Shown one piece after another: positions 43,422 to 47,690 of a stretch of 64,000 bases of DNA; position 1 is the stretch's first letter, and every line of letters starts with the position of its first letter. This DNA comes from Nostoc sp. UHCC 0302 (GTDB taxonomy: Bacteria > Cyanobacteriota > Cyanobacteriia > Cyanobacteriales > Nostocaceae), in contig NZ_CP151099.1 in the NCBI RefSeq assembly GCF_038096175.1, forward strand, positions 7,728,001 through 7,792,000. Direction: 5' to 3'. Below the pieces are notes generated by a model. The model did no database searches. It was not told the DNA's origin and was given only the letters and a program-made list of their open reading frames with translations. The translations under genes and the position numbers were made by a program.

Positions 43422-43784
43422 GTGTTTGTCCTCAGCGGTTACGAGTATCTTCTAGGCTTCTTACTCATCTGTAGCCTAGTACCTGCCTTAGCGCTCTCAG
43501 CGTCCAAGCTCTTACGACCCAGTAGTTACAGCCCAGAACGGCGCACTACATACGAATCTGGTATGGAACCCATTGGGGGAGCCTGGATTCAGTTCAACAT
43601 CCGCTACTATATGTTTGCCCTGGTCTTCGTCGTTTTTGATGTGGAGACTGTGTTTTTGTATCCTTGGGCAGTAGCGTTCCACCGTTTGGGGCTATTGGCA
43701 TTTATTGAAGCACTAATCTTTATTGCAATTCTTGTAGTCGCCTTAGTGTACGCATGGCGTAAAGGAGCTTTGGAGTGGTCTTGA
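43422..43784 (+). CDS. ndhC: NAD(P)H-quinone oxidoreductase subunit 3 (NdhC)
   Basis: 120 aa from GTG 43422. Three TM helices, with the family loop [20 protein letters not shown] between TM1 and TM2 and the [13 protein letters not shown] segment of TM2. NdhC lies in the membrane arm of NDH-1 near the quinone entry site, used in respiration and cyclic electron flow. Its end overlaps ndhK by 10 bp. Confidence 0.97.
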
Positions 43785-44512
43785 ATTCTAACTTAACAAC
43801 TCAGGACAAAGAGCGAATCATCAACCCTATTGAGCGTCCCTCAGTTACACAAGAGCTTTCAGAAAACGTCATTTTGACGACGGTTGATGACCTCTACAAC
43901 TGGGCGCGGCTTTCTAGTTTGTGGCCTTTGCTGTTTGGTACTGCTTGCTGCTTTATTGAATTTGCAGCTCTAATTGGCTCCCGGTTTGACTTTGACCGCT
44001 TTGGGCTAATTCCCCGTTCTAGCCCCCGCCAAGCTGATTTAATTATTACGGCAGGGACGATTACTATGAAGATGGCTCCGCAGTTGGTGCGTCTTTATGA
44101 GCAAATGCCAGAGCCGAAGTATGTCATCGCTATGGGAGCTTGCACGATTACTGGTGGGATGTTTAGCGTTGATTCTCCTACAGCAGTGCGTGGAGTTGAT
44201 AAACTAATTCCTGTAGACGTGTACTTGCCTGGTTGTCCTCCCCGTCCAGAAGCGATTATTGACGCAATTATTAAGCTACGGAAGAAGATTACTAATGATT
44301 CGATGCAGGAGCGGAGTAAGATTAAGCAAACTCACCGCTACTACAGCACGACTCATAACTTCAAGCCAGTAGATGAAATTTTAACTGGGAAGTATTTGCA
44401 GTCAGAAACTCGCTTTACACCACCTAAAGAATTGACAGAAGCGATCGGTCTACCAGTACCGCCTGCGTTGTTGACAGAAAAAGCGCAAAAGGAGGAACAA
44501 AACCGTGGCTGA
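43775..44512 (+). CDS. ndhK: NAD(P)H-quinone oxidoreductase subunit K (NdhK)
   Basis: 245 aa from GTG 43775 ([15 protein letters not shown]), overlapping ndhC. The N2 iron-sulfur cluster ligands are in [20 protein letters not shown] and LPGCPPRPE. It sits in the NDH-1 connecting module next to the quinone site. Followed by ndhJ with an 8-bp overlap, so translation is probably coupled. Confidence 0.98.
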
Positions 44513-45062
44513 AGAAGAATCTAAAGCAGTACCAGCAGACGAAGCAGAGTCTAAACCATTACCAGCAGCTCAAGAATCTCTAGTAGAAGCTGGTAAAATT
44601 TCCAAGTGGCTGACCGAAAATGGCTTTGATCATGAGTTTTCGGAACCAGACAAGAACGGGGTAGAGATTATTAAGGTTGAGCCTGATTTCTTGCTCCCCA
44701 CCGCTACAGCTTTGTATGCTTACGGGTTTAATTATCTTCAGTTTCAAGGTGGTGTTGACCTTGGGCCTGGGCAAGAATTGGTGAGCGTGTATCACTTAAT
44801 TAAAGTCGGTGATAATGGCGATCGCCCTGAAGAAGTGCGAGTTAAAGTGTTCTTACCACGGGAAAATCCGAGAGTGCCTTCTGTGTACTGGATTTGGAAA
44901 ACCGCAGATTGGCAAGAGCGCGAAGCTTACGATATGTTTGGCATTATCTACGAAGGACACCCGAATCTCAAGCGAATTTTGATGCCGGAAGATTGGGTGG
45001 GTTGGCCTTTGCGGAAGGATTACGTCTCGCCTGATTTCTATGAGTTGCAGGATGCTTATTAA
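44505..45062 (+). CDS. ndhJ: NAD(P)H-quinone oxidoreductase subunit J (NdhJ)
   Basis: 185 aa from GTG 44505. The complex I 30-kDa signature reads [17 protein letters not shown], then [14 protein letters not shown] and [15 protein letters not shown]. The first 35 residues are acidic and Ala-rich, a common cyanobacterial extension. Last gene of ndhCKJ; hairpins follow. Confidence 0.97.
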
Positions 45063-45123
45063 GTAGTGCTGAATAGAGACGCGATTCATCGCGTCTGTAC
45101 AATATAGTGTTTCGATAGTGATT

Positions 45124-45151
45124 AACCCCTTTCCGGTGGCGGAGAGGGGTT
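45124..45151 (+). terminator. Putative hairpin after ndhJ
   Basis: AACCCCT paired with AGGGGTT around a 14-nt loop, 60 bp after the ndhJ stop. A GACGCGATTCATCGCGTC palindrome of the dispersed family at about 45079-45096 lies between and may also stop transcription. Confidence 0.4.
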
Positions 45152-45484
45152 ATGTTTTCCATGTCTTGCGCAAAGGCGCAAAGAAGGACGCCAAAGAGTG
45201 TGGTTTTAAACAAGACAAAGGTTAATCAAAGCCTACAGAACCCCATGCTAGAAGCGAAAAAGGGATATTACACCTGTATTTCTGCAACAACCTTCTTGTT
45301 CTTTTGCGATCGCACTCAGCATCTCTATCGTCATTGGTGCGTAGGCGTAGCCCGTCGTAGACATCGCTGGACTAATTAAAATCCTAAAATCTGGCTAATT
45401 CCAACATCTAGTGCAGGTTAAAATTAGATATGCTCGTAAAAAATGTTGTATTTACAGCAGAGCTACTACAAAAATTAAAAGCTT
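45152..45484. other. Intergenic region with repeat fragments
   Basis: Contains a dispersed fragment near 45162-45197 (CTTGCGCAAAGGCGCAAAG). A 75-codon frame starting at 45152 overlaps it and is not supported. A 24-codon frame at 45430 runs into the antitoxin gene and is too short to call. Confidence 0.4.
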
Positions 45485-45832
45485 ATGACAGCCAGCAATA
45501 TTAGGCAACAAATTTTAGAGCATCTTAAAACATTACCTGGAGAACAGGTGAAAACTCTCCTGTTAACATGGCTGTCTGGTACATCCAATTCTTTAGAAGA
45601 TTTTGAGCGATTACTGACACATCAAACTACTCAAACGACGGAAGAATCATTTGAGTACGGAGAGATAGACACAGGATTAAATTTTCAACCTCTTACTGAA
45701 GCCCAAATGCTTCAGCAGAGTCAATCTGCTCTCGAAGCTTACCGTTCCAAAGGTTCAGGAATAGCCCATGATCACGTGCGTGAATGGGCTGAAAGTTTGG
45801 GAACAGATCGAGAACGTCCATGTCCTAGATAG
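45485..45832 (+). CDS. Putative antitoxin of a ParE/RelE-type pair
   Basis: 115 aa. The N-terminal helices (IRQQILEHLKTLPGEQVKTLL) lead to a polar middle and a C-terminus ending GIAHDHVREWAESLGTDRERPCP. This ending is like that of cyanobacterial antitoxins that precede RelE/ParE toxins. The stop overlaps the 5' end of the toxin frame by 13 nt, the usual coupled layout. The N-terminus is unlike the standard RHH or Phd antitoxins, so the family is uncertain. Its partner is broken (see 45820-46110). Confidence 0.7.
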   Translation: MTASNIRQQILEHLKTLPGEQVKTLLLTWLSGTSNSLEDFERLLTHQTTQTTEESFEYGEIDTGLNFQPLTEAQMLQQSQSALEAYRSKGSGIAHDHVREWAESLGTDRERPCPR

Positions 45833-46110
45833 TTTGGACTGAAACTGCAATTGACGACTTAAATCGTCATTACGATTTTGTAAAACTGAATAATCCTGAT
45901 GCAGCAGTACGTGCAGTACAAGCAATTGTTTCTTCAGGCGAAAGTCTAGAGCAGAATCCTCGTCGAGGTGCAATCGTAGATGAAATAGCAGGCTTACGAA
46001 AACTTTTGGTTTCTTTTGGTAAGTACGGCTTTATAATTCACTACGTTATTCTTGAGGATGATGTTGTTATTCTACGCATCTATCACGGGCGAGAGAATCG
46101 ACCTCGTTAG
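45820..46110 (+). pseudogene. ParE/RelE-type toxin, nonsense codon at position 3
   Basis: From ATG 45820 the frame reads ATG-TCC-TAG-ATA-GTT-TGG and then stays open for 93 codons. Translation after the TAG gives IVWTETAIDDLNRHYDFVKL and ends in IIHYVILEDDVVILRIYHGRENRPR, the ParE/RelE fold including the C-terminal catalytic-type RxYHGRENR. Restoring AAG at codon 3 would give MSKIVWTE, a normal start for this family. There is no other ATG, GTG or TTG near the start. It therefore looks inactivated by one substitution (see findings). Confidence 0.75.
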
Positions 46111-47487: not shown

Positions 47488-47690
47488 AAAAGCTAGTTTT
47501 GAAGTCGCAAAAGCTAGTTTTGAAGTCGCAAAAGCTGGTTTTGAAGTCGCAAAAGCTGGTTTTGAAGTCGCAAAAGCTAGTTTTGAAGTCGCAAAAGCTG
47601 GTTTTGAAGTCGCAAAAGCTAGTTTTGAAGTCGCAAAAGCTGGTTTTGAAGTCGCAAAAGCTGGTTTTGAAGTCGCAAAAGCTAGTTTGA
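47488..47690. repeat. 21-bp minisatellite, nine full copies plus a partial
   Basis: Unit AAAAGCTRGTTTTGAAGTCGC, identical in every copy apart from one A/G site. The order of that site is A A G G A G A G G A. Being 21 bp, the array leaves frames open on both strands (FEVAKAS-type and TSFCDFK-type); these are not taken as genes because no folded flank or ribosome binding site accompanies them. Confidence 0.92.

What the first reader, a model, noticed from the sequence alone, without database searches (positions are those of the whole stretch)
45820..45832. Toxin nonsense codon that is silent in the overlapping antitoxin
Seen: the ParE/RelE frame starts ATG-TCC-TAG-ATA-GTT-TGG. A single T to A change at 45826 would give AAG and the start MSKIVWTE. 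In the antitoxin frame the same base is the third position of a proline codon (CCT/CCA), so antitoxin protein is unchanged. Inference: loss of the toxin by a mutation invisible to the antitoxin, or a sequencing error.
Basis: partly seen in the sequence, partly recalled or inferred. Interest (0 to 1): 0.6.

Follow-up and report, generated by a model that had tools for sequence, protein, structure and literature searches.

The report
Chromosomal ParE toxin silenced, antitoxin left
In this cyanobacterium a small bacterial toxin gene has been switched off by one premature stop codon that leaves its overlapping antidote gene unchanged; relatives show the same toxin being lost repeatedly in other ways, so this is ordinary decay of a toxin-antitoxin pair and not a new mechanism.

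Summary
Codon 3 of a ParE/RelE-family toxin frame (45820-46110) is TAG, and the overlapping upstream antitoxin ORF (45485-45832) is whole. Codon 3 is CAG/CAA/CAC in 26 and GAG/GAA in 17 of 45 other distinct loci (AAA in two distant ones), so the likeliest event is a C-to-T transition, CAG to TAG, silent as CCC to CCT in the antitoxin. Silence is not remarkable: of 34 single substitutions that create a stop in the toxin, one lies in the 13-bp overlap and it is silent; the rest lie outside the antitoxin. Among 46 distinct loci, 12 toxins are broken, by different lesions, while 45 antitoxins are open; none has a whole toxin with a broken antitoxin. The nearest relative has a 0.3-kb insertion in the toxin, and the syntenic Komarekiella copy lost the antitoxin and toxin start. 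The module is sporadic, also on plasmids, and absent next to ndhJ in 29 other genomes. This is a recent step in the decay of a horizontally acquired chromosomal toxin-antitoxin module, a known phenomenon. A base-call error cannot be excluded without reads.

The parts
45485..45832 (+). antitoxin ORF, 115 aa, whole; no recognised family
   Evidence: 41-88% identical to the 31 aligned relatives; no Pfam or NCBIfam match above cut-off
45820..46110 (+). ParE/RelE-family toxin frame, codon 3 is a stop (pseudogene)
   Evidence: homologues open over 96 aa
45820..45832 (+). 13-bp overlap of antitoxin end and toxin start
   Evidence: same offset in most relatives
45826..45828 (+). premature TAG, codon 3 of the toxin; CAG or GAG in most relatives
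45123..45152 (+). terminator-like hairpin after ndhJ, separating the ndhCKJ genes from the toxin-antitoxin pair
43422..45062 (+). ndhC-ndhK-ndhJ, the chromosomal neighbour upstream
   Evidence: ndhJ query; shared synteny with L084; gene names from the translations and my own knowledge

Best explanation
A horizontally acquired type II toxin-antitoxin pair (ParE/RelE-fold toxin, unclassified antitoxin) sits downstream of ndhCKJ on the chromosome. Its toxin was inactivated by one nonsense substitution at codon 3, most likely CAG to TAG. Ribosomes that start at the toxin ATG stop after two residues; the antitoxin is still encoded unchanged. Shown: the stop, the whole antitoxin, open homologues, repeated independent toxin loss in the family, and related broken copies at the same site. 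Inferred: that the intact homologues are toxic, that loss of toxin is neutral or favoured while loss of the antitoxin first is not tolerated, and that the base call is correct.
For: TAG in frame and no alternative start. Open 96-aa homologues with the same start in 34 of 45 other distinct loci. Codon 3 first base C in 26, G in 17, A in 2, T only in the window (pattern scan of 218 family genomes, whose three other TAG/TAA matches are unrelated sequence). 12 broken toxins with different lesions against 1 broken antitoxin, the latter in a locus (L008) whose toxin is also cut; 11 of 12 against a length-weighted expectation of 0.455 gives p = 0.0012. Additional antitoxins with the toxin gone (L160, L195, L197, L199, L201-L203). 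Sister locus in Nostoc sp. CHAB 5836 with a ~0.3-kb insertion in the toxin and a shared downstream flank; Komarekiella atlantica at the same ndhJ site with antitoxin and toxin start deleted. TAG is the ordinary stop of both genes of the pair, so it is not recoded here.
Against: No reads to verify base 45826. Toxicity of the family is not tested. The 12-versus-1 count treats different lesions as independent and includes draft genomes and MAGs in which some lesions could be errors. Changes special to the window copy are too few to date the lesion (toxin 1 non-synonymous, 2 synonymous besides the stop).
Confidence: 0.84

Rival explanations
1. Sequencing or assembly error: the true base is C (or G) and the toxin is intact.
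For: Only this genome has T here; the rest of the toxin is open and 95% identical to its nearest intact relative.
Against: The assembly is 9 contigs at 99.99% completeness; it is a substitution rather than a homopolymer indel; the sister locus lost its toxin independently, which raises the prior for a real loss.
Confidence: 0.11
2. The TAG is bypassed, by readthrough, by restart at a near-cognate codon (ATA 45829), or by frameshift from the antitoxin, giving low toxin levels.
For: The rest of the frame is intact with few changes, and the antitoxin stop lies close after the TAG.
Against: TAG ends both genes of the pair; no slippery sequence at the junction by inspection; no relative uses such an arrangement; no suppressor tRNA gene in the window, though the whole genome was not scanned for one.
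Confidence: 0.04
3. The antitoxin is kept by selection as an anti-addiction gene against plasmids carrying the intact pair (an addition to the best explanation rather than an alternative to toxin loss).
For: Intact pairs lie on Nostoc plasmids, including conjugative ones; orphan antitoxins recur.
Against: Antitoxin substitution ratio in pairs with a broken toxin (about 0.38) does not differ from pairs with intact toxins (about 0.29, p = 0.54); many orphans are themselves truncated.
Confidence: 0.12

Closest known systems
[quoted passage not shown] ccdO157 in E. coli, Mine et al. 2009, as cited in PMC7167474)
   Same: Chromosomal location, horizontal origin, toxin inactivated by nonsense mutations or deletions, loss varying between relatives.
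   Different: ParE/RelE-fold toxin in cyanobacteria; the stop here lies inside the antitoxin overlap.
Orphan antitoxins (PMC7192599, Klebsiella)
   Same: Antitoxin retained without functional toxin; several independent cases.
   Different: Here the toxin remnant is still almost complete.
parDE/relBE-type modules with overlapping genes (e.g. Microcystis IPF_1067/IPF_1065, PMC7935541)
   Same: Antitoxin upstream, partial overlap with a ParE/RelE toxin, cyanobacterial.
   Different: The antitoxin here matches no Pfam or NCBIfam family, and the toxin is interrupted.

Membership tests
ParE/RelE toxin superfamily (PF05016) | Full-length domain match | tested here: met
   Residues 1-90 to profile 1-88 of 89, E 6.9e-15, above the cut-off; TIGR02385 28.8 bits against 27.9
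ParE/RelE toxin superfamily (PF05016) | Translatable open frame from a start codon | tested here: not met
   TAG at codon 3: a pseudogene of the family, not a working member
Type II toxin-antitoxin operon | Small antitoxin gene directly upstream or overlapping, co-conserved | tested here: met
   13-bp overlap, antitoxin ORF open in 45 of 46 loci
Type II toxin-antitoxin operon | Toxin toxic and neutralised by the antitoxin | not testable with these tools
   no experiment
Known antitoxin families (ParD, RelB, Phd/YefM and others) | Profile match of the antitoxin | tested here: not met
   No match above cut-off in Pfam or NCBIfam, none convincing in the PDB sequences; predicted fold of low confidence, pTM 0.32, no structural match
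Gyrase-targeting ParE versus RNA-cleaving RelE | Molecular target | not testable with these tools
   sequence places it only in the superfamily

The most novel reading that the evidence does not exclude
The remaining antitoxin is kept as an anti-addiction factor that protects the host against incoming conjugative plasmids bearing the intact pair, and toxin-first loss is a repeated route to such factors in Nostocaceae.
Probability: 0.12. Interest if true: 0.45.

Novelty: new member of a known kind. Interest (0 to 1): 0.2.

Why it matters
It is a clear early-stage example of toxin-antitoxin decay, and the family around it shows intact, toxin-dead, orphan-antitoxin and fragment stages side by side, with no case of a whole toxin beside a broken antitoxin. 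That asymmetry supports the view that the pair is a working addiction module where intact. On its own the stop codon is ordinary.

Tried and rejected
AAG as the earlier state: rejected, absent from relatives. Recurrence of the same codon-3 stop: three further TAG/TAA pattern matches (G001, G127) proved unrelated sequence. A 7-bp duplication around the CHAB 5836 insertion: an alignment artefact on reading the sequence. Viral copies: none. Classifying the antitoxin by profile, sequence or predicted fold: no result. The toxin ratio difference there (p = 0.045) is confounded by the unrelated tail of L080 and is not used.

Full report
Observation. Bases 45820-45837 read ATG TCC TAG ATA GTT TGG. The frame after the TAG is open for 93 codons and is a ParE/RelE-superfamily toxin: Pfam ParE_toxin PF05016 E 6.9e-15, TIGR02385 just above cut-off, and a solved RelE/StbE-family toxin, 7etr, at E 4.6e-10. 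The upstream ORF 45485-45832 (115 aa) overlaps it by 13 bp, and 45826 is the third base of its Pro-114 codon.

What the base was. I collected homologues from the genome's family and order and from a named genome collection, oriented them and reduced them to 46 distinct toxin-antitoxin loci. At codon 3 the first base is C in 26 (CAG, CAA, CAC), G in 17 (GAG, GAA), A in two distant loci (AAA) and T only in the window. The window's sister is Nostoc sp. CHAB 5836 (L079, GAA) and the next branch is N. linckia z4 (L032/L058, CAG), both with full support. A C-to-T transition, CAG to TAG, is the simplest reading; a G-to-T change is possible. A pattern scan of 218 family genomes found no second toxin with a stop at this codon; three other TAG/TAA matches are unrelated sequence.

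Is silence in the antitoxin special? In the toxin of the nearest intact relative, 34 single substitutions create a stop. One lies in the overlap, exactly this one, and it is synonymous in the antitoxin; the other 33 lie beyond the antitoxin. Silence in the antitoxin is therefore what any nonsense mutation here would show. A hit within the overlap has a probability of about 3% unweighted, or 8% with each transition weighted sixfold, which is not striking for a feature picked out after the fact.

The family decays toxin-first. Of the 46 loci, 12 have a broken toxin: the window, L007 (TAG at codon 6), L008 (TGA near the end), L056 (ATC start and a TAA), L079 (about 0.3-kb insertion), L080 (foreign tail), L086 with identical copies in L104, L105 and L123 (one extra base, seen in two strains), L087, L088 (103-bp insertion), L111, L118 and L121. 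The antitoxin ORF is open in 45; the exception is L008, whose toxin is also cut. No locus has a whole toxin with a broken antitoxin. With a length-weighted expectation, 11 of 12 gives p = 0.0012. The collection began from toxin hits, which works against finding orphan antitoxins. A search from the antitoxin then found further antitoxin loci with the toxin missing (L160, L195, L197, L199, L201-L203), many truncated at the 3' end. Toxin fragments without antitoxin also exist (L082-L084, L089, L100), all lacking the toxin start.

The site. Komarekiella atlantica (L084) has the same ndhCKJ - toxin remnant - downstream order; there the antitoxin and the toxin start are deleted and the toxin has a further 21-nt deletion. 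CHAB 5836 shares the downstream flank. In 29 other ndhJ loci the pair is absent within the 1.5 kb fetched. Intact pairs lie on Nostoc and Calothrix plasmids, some conjugative, and one plasmid of Nostoc sp. ATCC 53789 also has a split toxin. The pair is thus a mobile module that was acquired and is being lost.

Mechanism. Where intact, the pair most likely works as an ordinary type II module: the antitoxin, translated first, neutralises a ParE/RelE-fold toxin; this is inferred from family and layout. In the window, toxin translation stops after two residues and no usable downstream start exists near the front of the frame. TAG is also the normal stop of both genes, which argues against recoding. 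Readthrough or restart is possible but has no positive evidence.

Selection on what remains. Sister-pair counts show no difference in the antitoxin's substitution ratio between pairs with broken and intact toxins (0.38 against 0.29, p = 0.54), so an anti-addiction role is neither shown nor excluded. The changes special to the window copy are few, in keeping with a recent lesion.

What is known. Decay of chromosomal toxin-antitoxin systems by nonsense mutations and deletions, and inactive toxin mutants arising by drift, are described (PMC7167474, citing Mine et al. 2009, which was not held; passages). Orphan antitoxins are abundant in Klebsiella, with anti-addiction proposed (PMC7192599). Overlapping ParE-type modules occur in cyanobacteria (PMC7935541). 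The finding is a new member of this known kind. The antitoxin family itself is unclassified.

Verdict. Observation confirmed, interpretation partly supported, ordinary in kind. The remaining doubt is the base call, which needs reads.

Noticed in passing
L005, L039, L047, L048, L050, L057, L073, L092 (antitoxin): In one clade the antitoxin N-terminus is replaced (MTLTEILPSLQKLSHQEKIKAIQFLATELA in place of MTASNIRQQILEHLETLPGEQVK...), while the C-terminal half and the toxin stay: a domain swap in an unclassified antitoxin family.
   Followed up: partly
window 47488-47688: Tandem array of a 21-bp unit (GTTTTGAAGTCGCAAAAGCTA type), open in several frames on both strands; also present in CHAB 5836 and Komarekiella.
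   Followed up: no
L122 and L123 (Nostoc plasmids): The pair lies between a DUF1156-domain gene and a helicase-related gene, a setting that may be a defence-type island.
   Followed up: no
L079:2650-2960: About 0.3-kb insertion in the toxin with a hairpin end (CCCCTGCCTAAAGGCGAGGGG), which resembles, from memory, IS200/IS605-type ends; no clear target duplication.
   Followed up: partly
L118, toxin frame after codon 68: The toxin frame hits a TAA and then runs into a tandem repeat (WAYANRE), another kind of lesion.
   Followed up: no
window 45327-45373: 47-bp stretch found identical in CHAB 5836 at a different relative position (L079:6306-6352): a dispersed repeat.
   Followed up: no
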